A stretch of 64,000 nt of DNA. Source: Agrococcus sp. Marseille-Q4369. GTDB taxonomy: Bacteria; Actinomycetota; Actinomycetes; Actinomycetales; Microbacteriaceae. The DNA lies in NCBI RefSeq assembly GCF_018308945.1, contig NZ_CP070501.1:620001-684000 (forward strand), written 5' to 3'. The notes beneath the pieces are model-generated. The model saw only the letters and a program-made list of their open reading frames with translations. It made no database searches and was not told where the DNA came from. Positions 7,760-64,000 of this stretch are shown piece by piece; position 1 is the first letter of the stretch; each line of letters begins with the position of its first letter. The translations under genes were made by a program, and so were the position numbers.

Positions 7760-8515
7760 CTAGACGGGCACCGAGTGACACCACCCGCTATGGAGCTCGT
7801 CAAGCACTGAACCGTCGCTGACTGCTCGCGCCTGAGCCTTGGTGCGATCGGCTATTGGCACCGGATTCATCCGCGCGTCGTGGGCCGCAGCAAGCCGACC
7901 TGGATAGGCAGAGGGAGTCTCGTAGAATCGCGCGTCACCCAGGAGGCGCTTCACGACCGGCGGGCTCGCGCCGAGTTCGCGAGCGATCTGAGCATGTGAC
8001 AGACCCGTTCGTTGGAAGCTCAGAGCGGCGCGACAGCGATCGATTCGCCCCCTCATGGCAGCAAGCGCTTGATCCGACATGCCGCGTCGCTTCGCGGAGT
8101 CGCTCGGGGCGTTCCCTGCAATGTGTTGCGTCTCTGCCGCCGTGACACCCAACTGCGCTGCGACCTCCGCTGGAGCCGCTCCTTGGGTGGCCAAGGCTCG
8201 AAGTCGCGGCTCCAACAGCGCGGACCGCTGGCTCCTGAGGTGTGTCACTGACACACCCCGCTCTCTTCGCACGCTGTCTACAGTGCTCTTCGCGAGCCCG
8301 ACAAGCCTGGCGATTTCGGCGCTGTCTAAGCCTTGCCTCGCCAGGTCCACGATTCGCGCCTTGCGCTTCTCACGAGCTCTGTCCTCCGCCTCCCGCGCTT
8401 CCCATCGCACCTCCTGCAGGAAGGTGTGCGCATAGAACGGCAGAGCATCGGCGACCGGTCGGGTCGGGATCGCGAGCTGAAGTTCGGGGCGGTTAGCTCT
8501 TAAGACTGCGGGCAT
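7760..8515 (-). CDS. Uncharacterised protein with three helix-turn-helix segments
   Basis: I do not recognise this 251-residue protein. Three stretches look like helix-turn-helix units: residues 54-87 (LDSAEIARLVGLAKSTVDSV), 104-136 (APAEVAAQLGVTAAETQ) and 163-193 (LSHAQIARELGASPPVVKRLL). A charged segment (REAEDRAREKRKARI) before the first could be a helix. The ATG at 8515 is inside the 3' end of the HIRAN gene (16-base overlap), so the two are coupled. The frame stays open further upstream, but that part is antisense-like overlap with the HIRAN gene. A sequence-specific DNA-binding or recombination-directionality role is possible. Nothing catalytic is visible. Confidence 0.6.
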   Translation of the reverse strand: MPAVLRANRPELQLAIPTRPVADALPFYAHTFLQEVRWEAREAEDRAREKRKARIVDLARQGLDSAEIARLVGLAKSTVDSVRRERGVSVTHLRSQRSALLEPRLRALATQGAAPAEVAAQLGVTAAETQHIAGNAPSDSAKRRGMSDQALAAMRGRIDRCRAALSFQRTGLSHAQIARELGASPPVVKRLLGDARFYETPSAYPGRLAAAHDARMNPVPIADRTKAQARAVSDGSVLDELHSGWCHSVPV

Positions 8516-9174
8516 CTCGTCATCGCTGAAGTGGAAGCCCCCGCCACCACAGCGGCGCGGACTTCCTCCGAGAGTTGCTGCCACAGCACGCCGAAGCGCT
8601 TCGTCATGGTGTCGATCGACGGCATATGCCGGCGGAGCACATGAAACGTAGGGAGAGCTACAAACATCTGCGCGCTTGCGGAAGTGGATTCGCTGCGGAA
8701 GAACGTGCCTGCGACGAGCACTCGGTGCCCGAGCACGTTCAGCTGCCGCACCATCCAATGAGCGTGCTCCGCGTAACTCGCCGGTGCATACCCGATCTGG
8801 TGCCCGTTGAGGTAGATAGCGACCGCCGTCGAGTCGTACGGATTCCCGGGTTGCGGCACCAGTTCGGCATAGACCTGGTGCGGCTCTCCTGAGCCGAGGC
8901 TGCTCCATGTCTCCGCCCGCCGGAACTCCGTGCCGCGAACCGCCCTCCAGATCGCAGGAAGGTCGTCGAAAGGGCGCTTGTCGTGCGGAGCCACAGTCGC
9001 AGCTGCGCTATGGTCGACGACCACGAGCTGGCCCGCGGGGGCGACGTACTCCCCTGGGCCACTGACATATTGCGCGTCCATCGCGCGTTCCCATGCGCGC
9101 AGTTCAGCACCGCTCTTCAGACCAGCGAGCTCTTCGAACTGGAACTGCGATCTGGGCTTCTTCGGGTCTTTCAC
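8500..9174 (-). CDS. HIRAN-domain protein
   Basis: This is a 224-residue protein. Residues 98-135 carry a HIRAN-type motif: AELVPQPGNPYDSTAVAIYL followed by GHQIGYAP. HIRAN domains bind DNA ends or damaged DNA, usually fused to helicases or nucleases; here the domain stands in a small protein with no helicase. The N-terminal half and the last 80 residues are not recognised. The GTG start at 9174 has only a weak ribosome-binding site. It is the first gene of a pair with the triple-HTH protein and sits in the tRNA-Ala island, so a role in defence or element maintenance is a reasonable guess. Confidence 0.6.
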   Translation of the reverse strand: MKDPKKPRSQFQFEELAGLKSGAELRAWERAMDAQYVSGPGEYVAPAGQLVVVDHSAAATVAPHDKRPFDDLPAIWRAVRGTEFRRAETWSSLGSGEPHQVYAELVPQPGNPYDSTAVAIYLNGHQIGYAPASYAEHAHWMVRQLNVLGHRVLVAGTFFRSESTSASAQMFVALPTFHVLRRHMPSIDTMTKRFGVLWQQLSEEVRAAVVAGASTSAMTRCPQS

Positions 9175-10199: not shown

Positions 10200-12752
10200 T
10201 CAGGTCGTGATCGCGATGCCGCCGCGCACCTGCTGATGAACGGGCGTCCACAGGTCGACCTCGACCTCGGGGGACTCGATGCTGATGATCAGCGAGTAGT
10301 CGACGCCCTGCTCGCTCTGGTCGTCCTTCGCGCGGTTTTTCCACCAGCCGGCCACCGGATAAACGGCGATCGCTCCCTTACTCGCGAGGGCTGCGGCGCT
10401 CCCGGACCAGATGTCGGTGTGAAGGGAGCCTGCGGCTTGCTGCTGGTTGCTGCCGAAAAGCCACCCCGACTCGGTGTCGAGGGTGGGTGGCTTCTCACCG
10501 TCGATGCGGGCGCGAGTGTTGATGCGTTGACGGAACGACTCCACGCTGTCCTCGGGGCGACGTGTCGCGAACCGGAGTCCGTGTGAGGGGTAAATGTAAC
10601 GACCCGTCCAGCCGCGACTGGACGGGTTTGGCTCCACAAAGTAGGAGAGGGTGACCCGCATGCGGACTTGGGCAGCACCAAGTGCCTCGAGCTCCGCGAT
10701 CGGCCACGGCAACTCGTGCAGGTTCATCTCACGGGTCTTGCCGGCGTTGCTCATCCCCTGGCGTTCGTACGGGCGGATCGTCGCCTCCGCAACGAGCGTG
10801 AGCGCATCGGCGGCGCTGTAGAGCGCGCGACTCGCATCGGGTACCCCCATCCCATAGCGACGCAGGAGCGCGGTCAGCGCGGTCTTATTGGAGCCTGCGT
10901 CGAGGCGGGCCCGCATGGCGTCGGTCCACTCCGCGGAGTGCACCACGAGCGCGCGGATCGTCTCGGGGCGGAGGTCGGGGTAGGCGGCATAGATGTCGGC
11001 GGCGATCGCGGCGACGGAGGCGGTGGCGGCGGACGTGTCGCGTGTCGTAGTGAAGAAGCCGTCCCCCGGCGTGCGAAAACGCGTCGTCAGCAGCGCGAGA
11101 TTCTCCGGCGTGTCTGCCGTGGTCTTGTCGGGTGACGCGGCCACGTTGCCGCCGTCGGCGACCACGTCGGGCTTGAAGGGCCACTTCTTGCGATCGAACA
11201 GCACCGAGGTGCGGCTAACCGGGGAGAGCTCGCCGCGCGCGGCTATGGGCTGGTACCCGGCGAAGCTCGCGGGCGCGCCGGACATGTCGTCGTGTGCGGA
11301 GTAGGCCCCGACGGTGAGGGCGTTCCACGATTGGGCTGGATCCTCGACGGGTTCCAGGTCGCTGCGCTCAAGATGATCGTCCGTGACAGCGATATCGCGG
11401 ATGTTGCCGGCTGAGACGACGAACAGCCGGGGCCGCCGTGGCTCGTCTCGGTCGAGATAGGTGAACTTGGGGTCGGTGTCGTCGATCGCGCGGCCGAACG
11501 CCAGCGCATCGATCGACGCTGACCAAGAGGTCGGCTTCCCCGCTTCGCGCGCCGCCGTAGCATCACCGTCGGCTCGCGGCGTCGGGTGCCGCGCGGTGAT
11601 CGCGAGCATGAAAACCCGTGGTCGGTCCACGGCTTGGATCTCCGGCTGGTCGACCGCGCGGGCCGTGACAGCGCCATAGAGGTCTCGGTCGTTGTCTCCA
11701 CGGTCTGGAAGAAACTTCACCGACTCTAGGCGATGGCGGAGGTCGATCACATCTGAACTCAGCACAGCGGCGTGGAGGTCGCCATAGAGCGCCAGCCCGG
11801 CCATCTCGGTGCCGTGACGGTTCACGGGCGGGAGCTGCCACAGCGGGTCTGCGACATGCAGATCCGGAGCGGCTATCGAATCGGCCAGTAGCGGATGCTC
11901 GTCTTGGACGCCCGTGTCCAGAATGCAAACGACGGGCGCACCGGGCGCTGCTGGGCGCAGACGCTGACGGAGCTCGTCGATCCAGTCGGCCTGTTCGGAG
12001 GCGGGCAGCTCACTGAGGAAGTTCGCGACGTCGTGGGGCTGCCGAAGCTCGGCGATGTCATCCAGCGAACGGAAGGCCTCGGCGAGCTGGTCCGCCGTCG
12101 CGTGAAGCAGCACGACAGTCCTGTCGCCGAAGCCCAAATAGTGATCGCTCGTTCGTAGTCCGTGGGCCTTCGCGAAGGCGGTGAAACGCTGCAGTTCGTG
12201 GCCATCGCGGTTACGCAACCAAACCTCCCACCATCGCGCTTGCAAAGGATCGGCAGGGTACGCGTCGTCCGCGTCCGTCCAGAGCTCGCGGACCGTCGCG
12301 CGCCGGATGGCCTGGATGCCCTCCACCAGAGTCGCGTTGCGCGCCTTGTCGTCCTGCGCGGTCTCCACGTACTGCGTGAGGCGCTTGAGGAAATACTCCT
12401 TCTTCCCGTCCGGGATGTAGACAGTCGCGATCTGGACTGCGCCATCGGCGGAGTCGTCCTCCCGCACCGCGACGAGCTCAGGTTGCTCACCGGCCCGCTG
12501 CACATCCAAACTCTCCAACGCGAGTTCGAGGCCCGGAAAGGAGACAAATGCGAGATATGTGCCTTCGACCGCCTGTGCATCCGGTGCAGCCGTCACCGCG
12601 TTCTCGTATTGCTGGACGAGCGCCGCGCCGTGGCGACGGCGATCTCCCGAGAAGCCCGGCTCGTCGCTGCCGCCGCCACCGGTGGGGGTGGTGAAGGGCT
12701 CGGAGTCTGGCCGAGTAGGCACGACGATGTGCGGACGGTCACGTTCAGCCAT
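10200..12752 (-). CDS. ietS: S8 subtilisin-like serine protease, IetS-like
   Basis: This 850-residue subtilase has a complete catalytic set: Asp279 in CILDTGV, His313 in NRHGTEMAG, oxyanion Asn450 in VVSAGN, and Ser574 in RDTSAATAS, where the usual GTS is DTS. There is no signal peptide, so it acts in the cytoplasm. The N-terminal 260 residues and C-terminal 250 residues are family-specific. The ATG lies 2 bases after the AAA+ ATPase stop, giving a tight operon. An AAA+ ATPase next to a large intracellular subtilase is the layout of the IetAS anti-phage system. I infer that the ATPase senses or unfolds targets and the protease cuts them. The symbol reflects that similarity, not a proven orthology. 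Confidence 0.72.
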   Translation of the reverse strand: MAERDRPHIVVPTRPDSEPFTTPTGGGGSDEPGFSGDRRRHGAALVQQYENAVTAAPDAQAVEGTYLAFVSFPGLELALESLDVQRAGEQPELVAVREDDSADGAVQIATVYIPDGKKEYFLKRLTQYVETAQDDKARNATLVEGIQAIRRATVRELWTDADDAYPADPLQARWWEVWLRNRDGHELQRFTAFAKAHGLRTSDHYLGFGDRTVVLLHATADQLAEAFRSLDDIAELRQPHDVANFLSELPASEQADWIDELRQRLRPAAPGAPVVCILDTGVQDEHPLLADSIAAPDLHVADPLWQLPPVNRHGTEMAGLALYGDLHAAVLSSDVIDLRHRLESVKFLPDRGDNDRDLYGAVTARAVDQPEIQAVDRPRVFMLAITARHPTPRADGDATAAREAGKPTSWSASIDALAFGRAIDDTDPKFTYLDRDEPRRPRLFVVSAGNIRDIAVTDDHLERSDLEPVEDPAQSWNALTVGAYSAHDDMSGAPASFAGYQPIAARGELSPVSRTSVLFDRKKWPFKPDVVADGGNVAASPDKTTADTPENLALLTTRFRTPGDGFFTTTRDTSAATASVAAIAADIYAAYPDLRPETIRALVVHSAEWTDAMRARLDAGSNKTALTALLRRYGMGVPDASRALYSAADALTLVAEATIRPYERQGMSNAGKTREMNLHELPWPIAELEALGAAQVRMRVTLSYFVEPNPSSRGWTGRYIYPSHGLRFATRRPEDSVESFRQRINTRARIDGEKPPTLDTESGWLFGSNQQQAAGSLHTDIWSGSAAALASKGAIAVYPVAGWWKNRAKDDQSEQGVDYSLIISIESPEVEVDLWTPVHQQVRGGIAITT

Positions 12753-12754
12753 CC

Positions 12755-13753
12755 CTACGCGCTCCGGTCACCGAGGCCAGTCGACCGGGGCCGCTCCTCG
12801 AGGGCCGAGACCATGTCGCCCGTGAGGACCCGCATCCTGCCCGCAAGGACGCTGCGCTTCGCCGCGTTCTCCGCGCCCGTCGCGATCTCGGCATGGCTGA
12901 GTCCGCGGGCGGCCTCAAGTACGCGTGGCCAGCTGAGGTTGCTGATGTTGAACGTCGCGAGCCGGTTCCTGATGACCGCCTGGGCGCTGACGTCGTCGGG
13001 AAGCGTGAAGCTCATTACAGTGTCGAACCGTCGATACAGCGCATTATCCAGCAGCTGCGGATGGTTCGTTGCAGCGACGATCACGCTCTCCGAGGTGTCC
13101 TCTTCGAGGAACTGCAGGAACGAGTTCAGCACCCGACGTATCTCACCCACATCGTTAGCGGCGGCGCGGTCGCCAGCGAGGGCGTCCACCTCGTCGAACA
13201 GGTACACCCCACGGGTCTCGACTAGCGCGTCGAAGATCAGCCGCAGCTTCGCCGCCGTCTCCCCCATGAACTTCGTGATGACCGTATCCAGGCGGATCGC
13301 GAACAGCGGAAGGCCGAGCTCGGCCGCGAGTACGCGAGCCGTGGAGGTCTTCCCGGTGCCGGGGGGGCCTAAGAGCAGCAGCCGCCGCGCCGGACTGAGT
13401 CCATGCCGCGCAAGGGTGTCCCGCTGACGCTGCTCGAGCAGGACATGCCGCAGGCGCTCTCCGAGATCATCCGAAAGGACGAGATCGCCCAGTCTCGCGT
13501 CGGGATAGCTGACCGTGAGCAGCGAGCTCAGCTCGCCGCGAGGCTGCGTTACGGGGACCACCGATGCCACGCGTGAGGACACGGTGCCGCGCTGACGAAG
13601 ATCCTCGACGAGGTCGCGGAGGTCCTGCGCGAACTTGGACTGACCTGACCGTGCTGCCTTCGCCGCGACCTGCATAGCGACCGCGTAAAACTGTGGGTCG
13701 TCGCCGTCGGCGTGACTCTTTACGAGAGCTCTGAGCTGATCGTTGGTTGCCAC
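12755..13753 (-). CDS. ietA: AAA+ ATPase, IetA-like
   Basis: This 332-residue AAA+ ATPase has Walker A GPPGTGKT at 129-136, Walker B VYLFDEVD at 183-190, sensor-1 in AATN at 227-230, and an arginine-finger pair at 241-242 (YRRFD). The N-terminal 90 residues form a helical family-specific domain. I place the start at GTG 13753, preceded by AAGGAGGT; the open frame extends to 13876 but lacks a comparable site. It is followed 2 bases later by the subtilase gene. AAA+ ATPases of this type act as hexameric unfoldases or switches. With its partner it matches the IetAS defence architecture. The pair sits in an island, as expected for defence genes. Confidence 0.75.
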   Translation of the reverse strand: MATNDQLRALVKSHADGDDPQFYAVAMQVAAKAARSGQSKFAQDLRDLVEDLRQRGTVSSRVASVVPVTQPRGELSSLLTVSYPDARLGDLVLSDDLGERLRHVLLEQRQRDTLARHGLSPARRLLLLGPPGTGKTSTARVLAAELGLPLFAIRLDTVITKFMGETAAKLRLIFDALVETRGVYLFDEVDALAGDRAAANDVGEIRRVLNSFLQFLEEDTSESVIVAATNHPQLLDNALYRRFDTVMSFTLPDDVSAQAVIRNRLATFNISNLSWPRVLEAARGLSHAEIATGAENAAKRSVLAGRMRVLTGDMVSALEERPRSTGLGDRSA

Positions 13754-14126
13754 CGCCTGACCTCCTTGCGCGACGAGTACGGTCCTGACTGGGTCTGGCA
13801 GGCTGAAACCCGAGTGTAGCGATGAGCCCGGTGCCAGTCCGGACACCACGCCCCGGCCTGCGGCGACATCGCCCACTCACATGGACCGTGTCCACTCGCG
13901 CCGCACCATCCCGATGGAGAGCGTTGGATCCAAAGACGAACACCTCGTTTTCGCCCAGCTCATCGATTCACACGGACGCCCCTTTCGCCAACTCGACCAG
14001 TCCACACCAGGCAGACCCAAGCGCATCTTTCGTTGGCCGAGGCACGAGGCTCGCGAGCCGCACGGAACGAAGCGTTGATCCTCTTGCATAAGTCCGTCTT
14101 CACCCCAGCGAGCGCTCACCACATGG
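13754..14126. other. Gap upstream of the ATPase gene, with one gene fragment
   Basis: This holds the presumed promoter of the ATPase-protease operon. On the minus strand at about 13899-13969 a short open stretch reads NEVFVFGSNALHRDGAA. It resembles the opening of phage-linked proteins that begin ENEVFVFGSN. It has a stop directly upstream and loses similarity afterwards, so it looks like a remnant. Nothing else is evident. Confidence 0.35.
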
Positions 14127-16613: not shown

Positions 16614-16689
16614 TGGTGGATCTGGGGGGACTCGAACCCCCGACCCCCTGCATGCCATGCAGGTGCGCTACCAGCTGCGCCACAGACCC
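16614..16689 (-). tRNA. tRNA-Ala (anticodon GGC)
   Basis: The minus strand folds into a complete cloverleaf. The acceptor stem GGGTCTG/CAGATCC contains the G3-U70 pair that identifies alanine tRNAs. The anticodon stem is CCTGC/GCAGG with loop ATGGCAT, giving GGC. The T-arm reads GGGGGTTCGAGTCCCCC. The discriminator is A and CCA is encoded (16614-16616). Its 3' part is repeated at 7423-7458, so this gene is the integration site of the island and stays functional because the element restores its 3' end. Confidence 0.95.
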
Positions 16690-18846: not shown

Positions 18847-20842
<1,996 letters not shown>

Positions 20843-58692: not shown

Positions 58693-60021
58693 GTGACCGC
58701 ACGCTCGAGCAGCTCCGCCCGCGTCGCCACCGCCGCGACGGTCGGCACCGCGCTCGAATCGTACGACTTCTACACCTACTCCTACTTCGCCGCGTTCTTC
58801 GCCGGCCCCTTCTTCTTCTCGGCGCTCGGCGAGGCCGGCGCGCTCGCGGCGTCGTTCGCGACGATCGGCATCGCCTTCGTCGTGCGGCCGCTCGGCGCGA
58901 TTCTCTTCGGCCACCTCGGCGACCGCATCGGTCGCCGCTCGACGCTGCTCATCACGATCGCCCTCATGGGCGTCGCGACCGGGCTCGTCGGGCTGCTGCC
59001 GACCGGCGAGGGCTGGGCGCTGTTCGGCGCGGTCGCGCTCGTCGTACTGCGCATCGCGCAGGGCCTCTCGCTCGGCGGCGAGTGGGGCGGCGCCGTGCTC
59101 CTCGCGACCGAGCACGCCGACGCGCGCCGCCGGCCGTTCTTCGCGTCGCTGCCGCAGCTCGGCTCCCCGATCGGCTCGGTCGCCGCGGGCGGCCTCATGC
59201 TCGTGATGTTCTTCGGGCTCGGGCCCGAGGCGATGGCGGCGTGGGGCTGGCGCATCCCGTTCCTCATCGCGATCCCGCTCATCGCAGTCTCGCTCTACCT
59301 GCGCTGGTCGATCGACGAGACGCCGGTCTTCAAGGAGCTCGCCGCGAAGGGGCAGCGCGAGCGCAACCCCGTGTGGGCCGCGATCCGCACGCAGCCGGCG
59401 GCGTTCGGCGTCGCGATCCTCGTGGCGCTGCTCGGCATCGGCTCCTACTCGCTCATGAACACCTACACGATGGGCTACGGCGTCACCGCCCTCGGCTTCG
59501 ACGAGATGCAGTTGCTCACCGCCGCGACGATCGGCGGCCTGCTGCAGTTCGTCACGGTGCCGGGCTTCGGGTGGCTCGCGACCCGCATCGGCTCGGCGCG
59601 CGTCGTCGCGCTCGGCGCGGCGGGCACGCTGCTCATCGCCTTCCCCATCTACTGGCTGCTCGGCAGCGCGACCTTCGCCGTGCTCGTCGCGCTCATGATC
59701 GTCGGCGGCATCCTGCCGACCGCGTCGTGGGCCGCGCTCGGCGGCACGATGCAGGAGCTCTTCCGCGGCCGCCACGCCTACTCGGCGCTCTCGGTCGCCT
59801 ACGCACTCGCCGCCGTGCTCTCGGGCTTCATCCCCTACCTCACGACCGAGCTCGGCGTGCTCACCGGCGGCGCCTGGTGGCACCCGGGGGTCGTGCTCGC
59901 GGCGCTCTCGGCGCTCACGCTCGTCGGCGCGATCCTGGCGGGGCGGATGCGTCGGCTCGGCGACGAGGACGCCGACGCCGCACAAGCCGCCGTCCCCGAG
60001 GAGGCGACCGCGCCGGTGTGA
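58693..60021 (+). CDS. MHS-family MFS transporter
   Basis: This 442-residue transporter has about twelve helices. The metabolite:H+ symporter family motifs are GTALESYDFYTYSYFAAFF at the start, GHLGDRIGRRSTL, and QGLSLGGEWGGAVLL. Members import organic acids such as shikimate, proline/betaine or citrate. The GTG start follows GAGGAGATCC. It is divergent from its probable TetR repressor. Confidence 0.86.
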   Translation: MTARSSSSARVATAATVGTALESYDFYTYSYFAAFFAGPFFFSALGEAGALAASFATIGIAFVVRPLGAILFGHLGDRIGRRSTLLITIALMGVATGLVGLLPTGEGWALFGAVALVVLRIAQGLSLGGEWGGAVLLATEHADARRRPFFASLPQLGSPIGSVAAGGLMLVMFFGLGPEAMAAWGWRIPFLIAIPLIAVSLYLRWSIDETPVFKELAAKGQRERNPVWAAIRTQPAAFGVAILVALLGIGSYSLMNTYTMGYGVTALGFDEMQLLTAATIGGLLQFVTVPGFGWLATRIGSARVVALGAAGTLLIAFPIYWLLGSATFAVLVALMIVGGILPTASWAALGGTMQELFRGRHAYSALSVAYALAAVLSGFIPYLTTELGVLTGGAWWHPGVVLAALSALTLVGAILAGRMRRLGDEDADAAQAAVPEEATAPV

Positions 60022-60047
60022 CGCGCGGCCCCGGGCAGGATGGTGGG

Positions 60048-60338
60048 GTGCTGCTGCAGACCATCGCGAGGGGCGCGAGCGCCGAGGTCGAAATCTCGCG
60101 CTCGCGCTTCGTCGCGACGGCGCACCGCATCGCGAGCCTCGACGAACTCGCGCCGCTCGTGCGCGATGCACGCCGCGCGAACGCCGACGCGCGGTACGTG
60201 TGCACCGCCGCGATCATTGGACGACCGTCACGCAGCACGCGGCGCGCAGTCGCGGGAGTACCGGAACGTAGCGGTGCGATGTGCTTGTATCGGAAGAAGT
60301 TTCCCGGACGCTTGGAGGCACGGTGGAGTCGCAGCTGA
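60048..60338 (+). pseudogene. Broken 5' copy of a YigZ/IMPACT-family gene
   Basis: The first 57 codons encode a YigZ start (LLQTIARGASAEVEISRSRF, ATAHRIASLDELAPLV), then similarity ends after CTAAII near 60216. The frame runs into foreign sequence and stops at 60338. The same segment is repeated, with several substitutions, at 63632 in the complete copy. It overlaps the start of the HD-GHKL gene. It is a remnant left by or carried with the insertion. Confidence 0.75.
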
Positions 60339-63300
60339 AGACAAGAGCGGAGCAGGAGGCTTCGCGCGCTCAGAACTTCCCGGCGTTCTCCGCCCTGAGC
60401 CTTCCCTACGTCCGCGAACAAGTGGAAGAAGCACTCACCGCGTTCGGGAAGTTCAGCATGCTCGAGGAGTACACGAAGCATGACATGAGCCATATCGACA
60501 GCATGCTGAAGATGTACGACTGGTTGATACCGGCCGCGACTGCCGAGAAAATGACCGCCGCCGATTGGCTACTGGTTACGCTCGCAACTTACTTGCATGA
60601 CTTCGGGCTGCTAATAACACGCGACGAATTTGATCGCCGTGAAGCGGTGGAGGGATATACCAGGTTCTCGACCCGGGTCCGAGACAACGACGACCCCGAG
60701 TATATGGACTACCGGGCACAGTTGAATGCCATGCCGGGCGCCGACGCTGAGCGCTTTCTCTATCAGGAATTCGTGAGAGCAAATCATGCCCAGCGAATCC
60801 GAAGTTGGCTGCGCGAGATGCCCGACCCGGCTTTAGGATATGACGACCGAATCGTGGCGCGTCTGCGCGAGATTTTCGGCACCGTCGAGGAGACCTTCCT
60901 GGAAGACGTTGGTTTGGTATGCGAGAGCCACCACGCGGATGACCTGCACGACACGCACAAGTATCGTGTCGACCGCCCCTACGGTCAAGATCAGCAGGAG
61001 GAGGCAAATGTTCAGTATGCGGCCTTCCTACTCCGGACGGCAGACCTGTTGGATATCACGCGGACACGCGTGCCCTCGATGGCCGCGCTGATCGTTAATC
61101 CCCGCAACCCGAAGAGCCAGCTTGAATGGGCTAAACAAAGCGCTGTTCGAAGCGTGCGACCGCAACGCGTCGCTGTCGAGGAGGGCGACCCTATCCCGGA
61201 GCTCGACGTCATAGAGGTTCATGCCGACTTCAAGGAATCAGAGGGATTCTTCGGGTTGACCCAGTACCTGAAGTACGCGAGCGACCAGCTGGCCGAGACG
61301 CACCGATGGGCGAGTTCGAGCGGGACCGCGGCAGCCAAGACGTACTTGTTTCCCTGGCGCCGCATCGATCCGAGCAATGTTGTCGCGAAAGGATTCGTCG
61401 CGGAGCCCTTCAAGTTCACAATCGACCAAGGAAAAATTCTTGATCTGCTGACGGGACACACCCTATACAATGACAGCAGCGTCGTCGTTCGGGAATTGTT
61501 CCAGAACGCCCTGGACGCCGTTCGATTGCAAGAGTTTCTCGTGGCTGATTCCGCCTATGCGCCCACTGTTCAAGTATCGTGGGACTCTGCTAGCAGGATG
61601 CTGACTGTCGCCGACAACGGCACGGGCATGACTCAGTCGGTAATAGAGAACAACTTCCTGCGCGTTGGATCGTCCAGATATCAGGAGCCTGAGTTTCGAA
61701 AGTCCCACCCTGACTTCACTTCCATCAGCCGCTTCGGCATCGGTGTACTGACCGCCTTCATGGTCGCGGACGACGTGGAGGTCATCAGCGTCAATGAACT
61801 CGAGGACCAAGCACGGCAATTAACGTTGCGTGACGTGCACGGCCAGTATCTGGTGCGCCTGCTCGACAAGACCGACGCCCAAGTTCCGAGACTCGTTCGC
61901 AAACACGGAACGAGTGTTCGACTTAAACTCCGCCCGAGTGCAGTCGCGCTGAACGTCGAATCCGTGTTGCGGTACTGGTGCGTATTACCTGGATGTGCGG
62001 TTACTTTATCAATCGACGGGGGAGCGCCGGAGCCCATCGGCTTCCAGTCGATGGCCGACGCGCTCAAGCATGAGCTATTCCGTGCCGATGTCGTGAGTGT
62101 CGCGGAGGATGGTCTGACCAGTTCCTATGGCGACGCGGTAGAAGTCAGAGAGGCGTCGATCGACGGATGCACCTTGGCTTACGCGGTGGTCTGGAGCCAG
62201 TGGCTGCAAGAGTGGCGCTTCCTAAGCATTGATCGAGAGCCTCACTCGCGCAGAGAGCCATTGGTACTAGGGACAGCGATCGGAGGAGTGCGAGTCACTG
62301 AGGACGCTCCAGGCTACAGTCAGCTAGCCGGGATCGCAGCCATGTCGAATGTGACAGGGAAGGGAGCCCCGCGAACGAACGTCGCTCGGAGTGCGATCGA
62401 ACGCACTGAAGAGTATGACCAGTACCTCCAACGAGTCTACGAGATTTATCTCAACCATATTGATCACGAGATGAGTTCTCTGGAGACCGATCGAAGCACG
62501 TCGGCAACAAGGGCTGCAAGTGAGGGCTTTTATATGTTGCAGGATGTCGCGCAAGCGGGAGCTATAGAGTCGGCGGCGAAGTTGCGAACGAACGCTATCC
62601 AGCTACCGTATCTCGTAGTTGAAGATCAAGGGATTCGCGAGCGTAAGTCGCTGGAGGAGATTTCTCGCCTCGGGTCGGTTTGGACCGTCGAGGGGACGGC
62701 TGTCGACAACTTCGAGAGAGTACTGGGCACGATTCGCGGCGTCTCTTCTCCGTCGCTTGGCGCGCTAGCGACCGCTCTAGGGGTTTCGGACTCGTTGCGG
62801 TTGCCTGAGGGCGCTCTGATCTGCGGGCTTCCATCCGCTCGTGCGTATGGTGGGAGGCTGTTCGCCGAGCAGTGGGACCCAGTTGCCTTCGAAACTGACG
62901 ACGAGTCGAGAGTCCTGCGCGCCCGATGGCAGACCCGCGCTTCGGAGTCGGCATGGGCGGAAGTGCACGTTCCTAAGAGTCTTCCGCGAGTCTTACAGGA
63001 ACGCTTCGACGCCGTCGATCGCATGCGGCCGGGCGGCACGACCGATGTCTGTGTACCGACCGGCCCGTCTGTGGAGGTCTCCGGCATCACGCAAAGTGTG
63101 GTGAGGTGCCAGGGTAGGTATTTCGTATTGCCCCGCAGTCCGCTCTTGAACATTGCGCCGGCGAGGAGCGGTATTCCGGTCGATCAAGTGCGCTGGGCGA
63201 TCTCGTTCGTGTTGAACAACGTGGTCGCGGGCCAGCCGACACGAACGCGACTATTCGGCCATGTCGCCCCGACTAGGGAAGCCCGCGCCAGTTTCCTAAC

Positions 63301-63433
63301 CGCGATGCGTGATTACGGCCTATATGAGATCATCGACGAATCCAGCACGGTGGACGCGTTCCTCGATCCGTCGGCCGAAGTCCTGGATGTTAAGCAGTGG
63401 GATCGCCGTTCTCAAGCGGCAGGGCTCGATTAG
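60323..63433 (+). CDS. HD domain plus Hsp90-type (GHKL) ATPase, candidate defence protein
   Basis: This is a large protein of 1036 residues. The N-terminal 250 residues contain an HD-phosphohydrolase-like domain: H53-D54 in TKHDMSHI, H92-D93 in YLHDFG, and late Asp241 in RTADLLD. A GHKL ATPase follows with N-box ELFQNALDAV (391-400), G1 DNGTGM (431-436) and G2 RFGIGVLTAF (470-479), as in HtpG. The rest, about 500 residues, is not recognised. GTG 60323 has GGAGG upstream. Codon use is distinctly less GC-rich than neighbours, showing recent transfer. It lies alone between two yigZ copies. A nucleotide- or RNA-sensing antiviral role is inference. Confidence 0.8.
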   Translation: MESQLKTRAEQEASRAQNFPAFSALSLPYVREQVEEALTAFGKFSMLEEYTKHDMSHIDSMLKMYDWLIPAATAEKMTAADWLLVTLATYLHDFGLLITRDEFDRREAVEGYTRFSTRVRDNDDPEYMDYRAQLNAMPGADAERFLYQEFVRANHAQRIRSWLREMPDPALGYDDRIVARLREIFGTVEETFLEDVGLVCESHHADDLHDTHKYRVDRPYGQDQQEEANVQYAAFLLRTADLLDITRTRVPSMAALIVNPRNPKSQLEWAKQSAVRSVRPQRVAVEEGDPIPELDVIEVHADFKESEGFFGLTQYLKYASDQLAETHRWASSSGTAAAKTYLFPWRRIDPSNVVAKGFVAEPFKFTIDQGKILDLLTGHTLYNDSSVVVRELFQNALDAVRLQEFLVADSAYAPTVQVSWDSASRMLTVADNGTGMTQSVIENNFLRVGSSRYQEPEFRKSHPDFTSISRFGIGVLTAFMVADDVEVISVNELEDQARQLTLRDVHGQYLVRLLDKTDAQVPRLVRKHGTSVRLKLRPSAVALNVESVLRYWCVLPGCAVTLSIDGGAPEPIGFQSMADALKHELFRADVVSVAEDGLTSSYGDAVEVREASIDGCTLAYAVVWSQWLQEWRFLSIDREPHSRREPLVLGTAIGGVRVTEDAPGYSQLAGIAAMSNVTGKGAPRTNVARSAIERTEEYDQYLQRVYEIYLNHIDHEMSSLETDRSTSATRAASEGFYMLQDVAQAGAIESAAKLRTNAIQLPYLVVEDQGIRERKSLEEISRLGSVWTVEGTAVDNFERVLGTIRGVSSPSLGALATALGVSDSLRLPEGALICGLPSARAYGGRLFAEQWDPVAFETDDESRVLRARWQTRASESAWAEVHVPKSLPRVLQERFDAVDRMRPGGTTDVCVPTGPSVEVSGITQSVVRCQGRYFVLPRSPLLNIAPARSGIPVDQVRWAISFVLNNVVAGQPTRTRLFGHVAPTREARASFLTAMRDYGLYEIIDESSTVDAFLDPSAEVLDVKQWDRRSQAAGLD

Positions 63434-63631
63434 GGCGCCGCACCTTGCTTGAGTCGAAACGGCGACACTCGGGGTGCCGTCTTGCGTTCCCCAGCGCCCA
63501 CGTGGTTTTTCTCAGGACGCGGAACTAGCAACGCGTGCGCTGGAGGATGTATCGAGCGCGACGCGTGCCGCGTGCCCCATGGCCAGGGCCAGGCGCGCGA
63601 CCGGCTGGCGAAGCCCGGGCAGGATGGAGGG

Positions 63632-64000
63632 GTGCTGCAGCCGACCATCGCGAGGAGTGCGAGCGCCGAGGTCGAGATCTCGCGCTCGCGCTTCCTCGCG
63701 ACGGCGCACCCCATCGTGAGCCTCGACGAGCTCGCGCCGCTCGTGCGCGACACCCGCCGCGCGCACCCCGTCTCGCGGCACGTGTGCAGTGCCGCGATCG
63801 TCGGCCCGCACGGCGAGTCGAGCCGCTCGAACGACGACGGCGAGCCCGCCGGCACCGCGGGATCGCCGATCCTCTCGGCGATCGCCGGCCGCGGCCTCAC
63901 CGACGTCGCGGTGCTCGTCGTGCGCTGGTTCGGCGGCGTGAAGCTCGGCACCGGAGGGCTCGTGCGCGCCTACGGCGGCATCGCGGCGGATGCGCTCGAC
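63632..64000 (+). CDS. YigZ/IMPACT-family protein (partial, right edge)
   Basis: There are 123 codons from GTG 63632 (after GGATGGAGG) to the window end. The protein has the family motifs: SRSRFLATAHPIVSLDELAP, NDDGEPAGTAGSPIL, VVRWFGGVKLGTGGLVRAYG. These proteins are poorly understood and linked to translation control. The 5' 170 bases are duplicated at 60048. GC content is host-like, so the copy is native or from a close relative. Confidence 0.88.
   Translation, partial: MLQPTIARSASAEVEISRSRFLATAHPIVSLDELAPLVRDTRRAHPVSRHVCSAAIVGPHGESSRSNDDGEPAGTAGSPILSAIAGRGLTDVAVLVVRWFGGVKLGTGGLVRAYGGIAADALD

What the first reader, a model, noticed from the sequence alone, without database searches (positions are those of the whole stretch)
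60048..64000. HD + Hsp90-like ATPase gene inserted at a duplicated yigZ
One 3.1-kb gene of low GC lies between a broken yigZ start and an apparently intact yigZ. The protein fuses an HD phosphohydrolase-like domain to a GHKL ATPase with all boxes kept, plus about 500 unrecognised residues. Single large GHKL proteins in variable loci are often antiviral. This is my best candidate for an undescribed single-gene system.
Basis: partly seen in the sequence, partly recalled or inferred. Interest (0 to 1): 0.75.

Follow-up and report, generated by a model that had tools for sequence, protein, structure and literature searches.

The report
Bacterial HD–Hsp90 fusion, probable phage-defence gene
A rare, probably horizontally acquired bacterial gene joins an HD-type phosphohydrolase domain to an Hsp90-type ATP switch; it looks like a phage-defence protein of a class that has already been predicted from sequence but whose function I could not find tested.

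Summary
A 1036-aa ORF (60323-63433; GC 58.8%, window 71.2%) lies between a truncated yigZ start (60048-60338) and an intact 205-aa yigZ (63632-64249). Congener G022 has the uninterrupted site; 0 of 23 congeners matched the gene. The N-terminal part is Pfam HD-CE (E 8e-46); H53, H92, D93, H155, H203 and D241 are invariant in 8 of 8 aligned sequences. The middle is an Hsp90-type GHKL domain with its motifs kept. The last ~480 residues match no library used; only one relative (G707, 41% identity) aligns over the whole length, and it has a SLATT_2 gene 23 nt downstream. Distant homologues lie on plasmids near a TIR protein, type I restriction, Shedu or recombinases. In another actinobacterial genome (G395) the same HD-CE domain is fused to a NACHT/STAND-type NTPase instead. 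Best reading: an immune sensor-effector in which an Hsp90-type ATP switch, standing where other proteins use a STAND switch, gates an HD phosphohydrolase that attacks nucleotides. I recall HD-CE effectors and HSP90-coupled immune modules as already predicted (Nicastro 2023, not readable here), so this is a new member of a predicted kind. Function is inferred; structure prediction failed.

The parts
60323..63433 (+). HD-CE/Hsp90-like GHKL fusion gene, 1036 aa (GTG start; stop codon included)
60461..61201 (+). HD-CE domain (Pfam PF24391); H53, H92, D93, H155, H203, D241 invariant in 8 of 8 aligned sequences
61412..61981 (+). Hsp90-type GHKL ATPase domain, about residues 364-553; E391/N395, DxGxG 431-435, FGIG 471-474, HGT 528-530
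61982..63430 (+). C-terminal region (residues 554-1036) without a library match; aligns throughout only with G707
60314..60318 (+). GGAGG, ribosome-binding-site-like stretch before GTG 60323
60048..60338 (+). truncated yigZ copy A: 56 codons of yigZ running into the insert; its stop overlaps the new gene's start by 16 nt
60030..60215 (+). left copy of the 186-bp direct repeat (yigZ leader and 5' end), 89% identical to 63614-63799
63614..63799 (+). right copy of the 186-bp direct repeat
63632..64000 (+). intact yigZ copy B (UPF0029), 205 aa, continues to 64249 outside the window

Best explanation
A horizontally acquired anti-phage (or anti-plasmid) immune protein. Shown by sequence: a complete HD metal-phosphohydrolase motif set, then an Hsp90-type ATP-binding domain with its motifs intact, then ~480 residues of its own, inserted at yigZ in one lineage. 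Inferred: the C-terminal region senses an infection cue; the Hsp90-type domain acts as an ATP-dependent clamp or switch, in the place where a related HD-CE protein has a NACHT/STAND NTPase; its closure releases the HD domain, which breaks down nucleotides (dNTPs, NTPs or a signalling nucleotide) and stops phage replication or halts the cell. In the one full-length relative the same switch may also control a SLATT_2 membrane effector.
For: HD-CE (E 8e-46) and HATPase_c_3 (8.5e-12) over their Pfam cut-offs. Both models pass their cut-offs in all seven homologues scanned for them (G707; Hymenobacter, Pseudoalteromonas, Zymomonas, Priestia, G361, G122). 8 of 8 aligned sequences keep H53/H92/D93/H155/H203/D241 and E391/N395/D431/G433/G435. 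In G395 (L087) HD-CE (3.6e-14) is followed by NACHT (1.5e-8) and nSTAND3 (3e-7) in one frame. Patchiness: 0 of 23 congeners; no other match touching the HD part among 398 family genomes searched with the single protein; one full-length relative in the listed matches of 394 class genomes. Foreign GC and empty site. G707 has SLATT_2 (3.7e-33) 23 nt downstream on the same strand. Plasmid homologues lie 1 kb from a TIR-ATPase, 2.4 kb from type I RM, between recombinase and integrase genes, 5 kb from Shedu. PADLOC's RT_UG24 model matches the HD region (3.8e-6 here, 1.5e-16 in L113). By analogy: in VcSduA, a GHKL ATPase fused to a nuclease, ATPase and nuclease variants both abolish phage defence (PMC12137116, passages); the HD dNTPase CloA works in a defence system (PMC12265719, passages).
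Against: No phage test exists here for this protein. Immediate chromosomal neighbours are ordinary: MFS, TetR, aminotransferase IV, fructosamine kinase, tRNA synthetase. PADLOC matches are partial and weak. The neighbourhood evidence is six loci, five of them plasmids picked from 276 matching records, with no background rate. Neighbours of G459, G122, G666 and G302 were listed as frames but not scanned. No substrate evidence. AlphaFold2 on the single sequence gave mean pLDDT 37.
Confidence: 0.62

Rival explanations
1. The real effector of this family is a partner membrane protein (SLATT_2), and the HD-Hsp90 protein is its sensor and regulator, for example destroying or controlling a nucleotide that holds it back. 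The copy here has lost its partner and is an orphan.
For: The only full-length relative has SLATT_2 23 nt downstream on the same strand. A SLATT_2 search of the window's own genome found nothing. The Pseudoalteromonas homologue has a 195-aa protein nearby with a very weak SLATT-type match (PADLOC RTasSLATT 0.006).
Against: Pfam found no SLATT in that 195-aa protein, nor in the neighbours scanned beside the Aliarcobacter, Priestia and Zymomonas homologues or the one scanned beside Hymenobacter. One search's 14 control genomes also gave nothing, so absence in the own genome is not proven. HD residues are kept in 8 of 8.
Confidence: 0.17
2. A specialised Hsp90/HtpG-type chaperone or stress protein with a housekeeping or niche role, not defence.
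For: The GHKL domain is nearest to Hsp90/HtpG/TRAP1.
Against: Profile comparison with HtpG stops at residue 553, so no Hsp90 middle or C-terminal domain was detected. HD-CE fusion. No match in 23 of 23 congeners.
Confidence: 0.1
3. A restriction-type enzyme related to BbrUII/HgiDII or MORC-like GHKL proteins, acting on DNA.
For: Partial matches to BbrUII (3.3e-16, residues 386-549 in numbering) and PADLOC REase_II (7.5e-7).
Against: These cover only the GHKL domain and lie far below the family cut-off (59 against 550 bits). No nuclease domain was found in the libraries used.
Confidence: 0.06
4. A decaying insertion without function in this strain.
For: yigZ copy A is truncated; the simple sigma-70 scan of 59950-64000 shows no promoter-like site in front of the gene.
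Against: 1036-codon intact frame, motifs kept, RBS-like stretch, start overlapping the truncated yigZ frame.
Confidence: 0.05

Closest known systems
HD-CE effectors and HSP90-coupled immune modules (Nicastro, Burroughs, Iyer, Aravind, NAR 2023, doi 10.1093/nar/gkad879; paper not held, content recalled; title seen in reference lists)
   Same: HD-CE domain (Pfam PF24391) joined to an Hsp90-type ATPase
   Different: Long C-terminal region aligning throughout only with G707; sits alone, inserted at yigZ; whether this exact architecture is in that paper could not be checked
HD-CE + NACHT/nSTAND3 protein in genome G395 (L087)
   Same: Same N-terminal effector domain coupled to an ATP-dependent switch
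   Different: The switch is a P-loop NACHT/STAND NTPase, not an Hsp90-type GHKL domain
VcSduA (Shedu with GHKL domain; PMC12137116, passages)
   Same: GHKL ATPase thought to control a fused catalytic domain in one defence protein
   Different: There the effector is a C-terminal PD-(D/E)xK nuclease; here an N-terminal HD domain
Clover CloA, HD dNTPase (PMC12265719, passages)
   Same: HD phosphohydrolase fold used as defence effector on nucleotides
   Different: CloA works with a separate nucleotidyltransferase and forms an octamer; here control would lie in a fused Hsp90-type ATPase
HtpG/Hsp90 chaperones
   Same: N-terminal ATP-binding domain (residues 364-553)
   Different: No detectable Hsp90 middle or C-terminal domain; extra HD-CE domain
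RT_UG24 (PADLOC DRT model)
   Same: Model positions 696-878 match the HD region
   Different: No reverse transcriptase here

Membership tests
HD-CE (Pfam PF24391) | score over the curated cut-off (27 bits) | tested here: met
   157.3 bits, E 8e-46, profile 1-235 of 263
HD-CE (Pfam PF24391) | HD-superfamily metal ligands H...HD...D | tested here: met
   H53, H92, D93, H155, H203, D241 invariant in 8 of 8
HD-CE (Pfam PF24391) | nucleotide phosphohydrolase activity | not testable with these tools
   needs biochemistry
GHKL / Hsp90-type ATPase | N box, G1, G2, G3 motifs | tested here: met
   E391/N395, D431-G433-G435, FGIG 471-474, HGT 528-530; HATPase_c_3 45.7 bits against cut-off 25
HtpG/Hsp90 chaperone | middle and C-terminal domains in addition to the N domain | tested here: not met
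   hhalign against 7 HtpG-type sequences aligns only 364-553; NCBIfam HtpG 73.3 bits against cut-off 371
BbrUII/HgiDII restriction enzyme | full-length family score | tested here: not met
   59 bits against cut-off 550, GHKL part only
HSP90-coupled immune systems (Nicastro 2023, recalled) | HSP90 module coupled to a nucleotide-targeting effector domain | tested here: met
   HD-CE plus Hsp90-type domain in one protein; the definition is from recall, the paper could not be read
HSP90-coupled immune systems (Nicastro 2023, recalled) | demonstrated anti-phage activity | not testable with these tools
   no experiment available
SLATT-containing immune operons | SLATT gene adjacent | tested here: not met
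   next genes are MFS upstream and yigZ downstream; SLATT_2 is adjacent in G707

The most novel reading that the evidence does not exclude
A chaperone fold turned into an immune receptor: the Hsp90-type clamp itself recognises phage proteins as 'clients', and client-driven closure switches on the fused HD nucleotide hydrolase (and, in the relative with SLATT_2, a membrane effector). This would be an NLR-like guard built on Hsp90 rather than on a STAND NTPase, with the ~480-residue C-terminal region forming the client groove.
Probability: 0.12. Interest if true: 0.75.

Novelty: new member of a known kind. Interest (0 to 1): 0.42.

Why it matters
If true, it gives a compact one-protein test case for two predictions for which I found no experiment: that HD-CE domains destroy nucleotides in immunity, and that Hsp90-type ATPases can stand in for STAND/NLR switches in bacteria. 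The HD-CE/NACHT protein of G395 and the G707 pair with SLATT_2 make both ideas directly testable side by side in laboratory hosts.

Tried and rejected
Literature: 'HD-CE' as a whole word gave 12 papers, none relevant by title. Other combinations: 7 papers, 20 listed of 210, 0, 10 listed of 24,615, 0, 15 listed of 2,069, 20 listed of 1,082; I saw no description of this fusion in these capped listings, which cover open-licence PMC papers only. The eLife 2020 conflict-systems paper holds none of the five terms I asked for. The search for related loci in genome contigs gave 17 loci, all matching only the GHKL part; viral contigs gave none for the window protein or the G707 protein; both scans use six short exact patterns and reach close relatives only. 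Phage records: 31 matched, the 20 shown all on the GHKL part. Structure prediction of the window protein alone gave mean pLDDT 37, so no fold search was made; the second job was not used because relatives from the genome search are not accepted there. SLATT_2 in the own genome: empty, but the 14 controls were empty too. The G707 SLATT_2 protein had no match in plasmids. Repeat search found no short duplication at the insert's edges other than the yigZ repeat. Pfam on five genes downstream of yigZ found no integrase, so the mode of insertion is unknown. I first thought the segment near residue 684 resembled the Hsp90 middle-domain catalytic-arginine loop; profile comparison did not extend beyond residue 553, so I dropped it.
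Full report
WHAT IS THERE. The ORF 60281-63433 (+) is open for 1050 codons. Pfam: HD-CE (PF24391) E 8e-46 and HATPase_c_3 E 8.5e-12 (numbered from 60281; subtract 14 for the 60323 start). NCBIfam gives partial matches to HSP90-family/HtpG models (4.1e-27, 1.4e-20) and to BbrUII restriction enzymes (3.3e-16), on the GHKL part and far below their cut-offs. The gene's GC is 58.8% and its GC3 68%, against GC3 96% for the upstream MFS gene and 71.2% GC for the window.

THE SITE. Window 60030-60215 repeats 63614-63799 at 166/186 identical. Copy A (start 60048) keeps 56 yigZ codons, then its frame runs into the insert and stops at 60338, 16 nt inside the new gene. The new gene may therefore be expressed from a yigZ-coupled message; this is inference. 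Copy B is a complete 205-aa yigZ (63632-64249), UPF0029 E 2.5e-31. In congener G022 a 416-nt query spanning the MFS end and the yigZ start (59800-60215) aligns in one piece at 94.5%, so the uninterrupted site exists. One search was given 18 same-genus loci, one of them the window's own. Of the 17 others, 7 had an MFS match over 1 kb in the same locus as a yigZ match, and none of the 17 matched the gene. Copy A is 90.9% and copy B 93.0% identical to G022's yigZ, so the repeat is not a fresh exact duplication; which copy came with the insert is open. Against G022 each copy shows 7 synonymous and 7 non-synonymous codon differences in 56, which does not settle it. No integrase was found among the five downstream genes scanned, and no other short repeat bounds the insert.

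HOW RARE. With the window protein, 4 of 60 genomes match: the own genome and three more distant ones on the GHKL part only; 0 of 23 congeners match (four of these are less than 90% complete). Family: 61 of 398 match, own genome included. No other listed match starts before residue 322, so none touches the core of the HD domain; one is a short C-terminal stretch with three stops. At most two candidates per genome were scored there, and a single protein can miss distant fusions. Phylum: 65 of 396, own included; besides it only G361 reaches into the HD domain (221-525); two hits are on short C-terminal stretches (G216 967-1049, G231 909-1006). The HD-CE profile is more sensitive: 37 of 396 phylum genomes at E <= 0.001, 8 of 396 over the cut-off, own included; one of 14 control genomes rang, below the cut-off. 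G122 and G361 among these carry HD-CE and HATPase_c_3 in one frame. Class, with profile A1: 127 of 394, nearly all listed matches on the GHKL part; G707 (1038-codon frame, E 1e-142), G459 (620 codons) and G666 (one internal stop) reach into the HD domain; the match list was cut. In G707's own family 79 of 180 match, G707 included, and no other listed match starts before residue 310.

RELATIVES AND THEIR NEIGHBOURS. G707's protein is 41% identical over nearly its whole length (426/1040). A SLATT_2 gene (PF18183, E 3.7e-33, 'SMODS and SLOG-associating 2TM effector domain 2') follows 23 nt downstream on the same strand. I opened 5 of 276 matching plasmid records; the two Lachnospira/Eubacterium eligens records that also span HD and GHKL were not opened. 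They are 18-25% identical to the window protein in A1: Aliarcobacter (annotated as two CDS; Shedu gene about 5 kb away), Priestia (type I RM 2.4 kb away), Hymenobacter (recombinase 36 nt before, integrase 130 nt after, AbiEii-type toxin gene 2.4 kb away), Zymomonas (TIR-ATPase protein 1 kb away), Pseudoalteromonas (a 195-aa nearby protein with a very weak SLATT-type match in PADLOC and none in Pfam). These loci were chosen by similarity, no background rate was measured, and plasmids are rich in defence genes anyway. The Aliarcobacter match reaches residue 738 in numbering, so part of the C-terminal region has distant kin; only G707 aligns throughout.

THE SAME EFFECTOR WITH A STAND SWITCH. In G395 (L087) a 688-residue stretch of a 1279-codon frame carries HD-CE (3.6e-14), then NACHT (1.5e-8) and nSTAND3 (3e-7). 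So the same effector domain is joined to an Hsp90-type switch in one set of proteins and to a NACHT/STAND switch in another. This is the best sequence support here for the switch reading.

CATALYTIC RESIDUES. In the 8-row alignment (window, G361, Hymenobacter, Zymomonas, Pseudoalteromonas, Priestia, G122, first Aliarcobacter piece) the invariant positions are H53, H92, D93, R152, H155, H203, D241, R249, R390, E391, Q394, N395, D431, G433 and G435. In six rows including G707, H57, G449, S451, F471-G474, F479, D483 and D896 join them. Both the HD metal-ligand set and the GHKL motifs are thus kept across phyla.

WHERE HSP90 LIKENESS ENDS. Profile comparison with seven HtpG-type proteins aligns residues 364-553 only (99.5% probability). 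PDB searches find Hsp90/TRAP1 chains over about the same stretch (best 60 shown of 151 and of 156). It is an Hsp90-type ATP-binding module in a different protein, not an HtpG chaperone with an added domain.

HOW IT MOST LIKELY WORKS. Inferred: the C-terminal region senses, the Hsp90-type module switches with ATP, the HD domain hydrolyses nucleotides. By analogy: VcSduA variants in the GHKL ATPase or in the nuclease lose phage defence (PMC12137116, passages), and the HD dNTPase CloA acts in the Clover defence system (PMC12265719, passages). bNACHT25 needs the chaperone DnaJ to sense phage (PMC12169576, passages), which makes the bolder client-sensing reading thinkable. PADLOC's RT_UG24 model carries a related HD region.

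KNOWN OR NEW. The Pfam name HD-CE and my recollection of Nicastro et al. 2023 (NAR 51:11479; not held; seen only in reference lists and one citing sentence) say that HD-CE is a predicted nucleotide-targeting effector and that HSP90-related modules are coupled to such effectors. I file this as a new member of that predicted kind. Its own features are the ~480-residue C-terminal region shared throughout with G707, the link to SLATT_2 in that relative, and the insertion at yigZ. I saw no experimental description in the open-licence papers searched (listings capped).

LIMITS. The structure prediction is unusable (mean pLDDT 37). The SLATT_2 search of the own genome is inconclusive.

Noticed in passing
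window 10203-13876 (-): A subtilase gene (850 aa, Peptidase_S8 8.3e-52) and an AAA ATPase gene (373 aa) match PADLOC IetS (2e-34) and IetA (5.2e-73): a likely ietAS defence pair of lower GC3 (~0.8), about 2.7 kb from tRNA-Ala 16614-16689.
   Followed up: partly
window 8503-9174 (-): A 224-aa protein with a HIRAN domain (9.1e-7) and low GC3 (0.75), near the ietAS-like pair; may be part of the same island.
   Followed up: no
window 19260-20480 (+): A 406-aa ORF with low GC3 (0.78) and no Pfam match at 1e-5.
   Followed up: no
L175 6221-9933 (-), genome G707: Full-length relative of the window gene followed 23 nt downstream by a SLATT_2 gene, then a NUDIX-like ORF (label from reading the sequence, no library call): a two-gene candidate immune operon.
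   Followed up: partly
L087 1366-3429 (+), genome G395: HD-CE fused to a NACHT/nSTAND3-type NTPase: an NLR-like candidate immune protein with the same effector domain.
   Followed up: partly
L121-L141, class genomes: 19 of these 21 loci lie in frames of about 1300-2500 codons that contain a related Hsp90-like segment; the frames of G302 and G408 also carry HD-CE over the cut-off.
   Followed up: no
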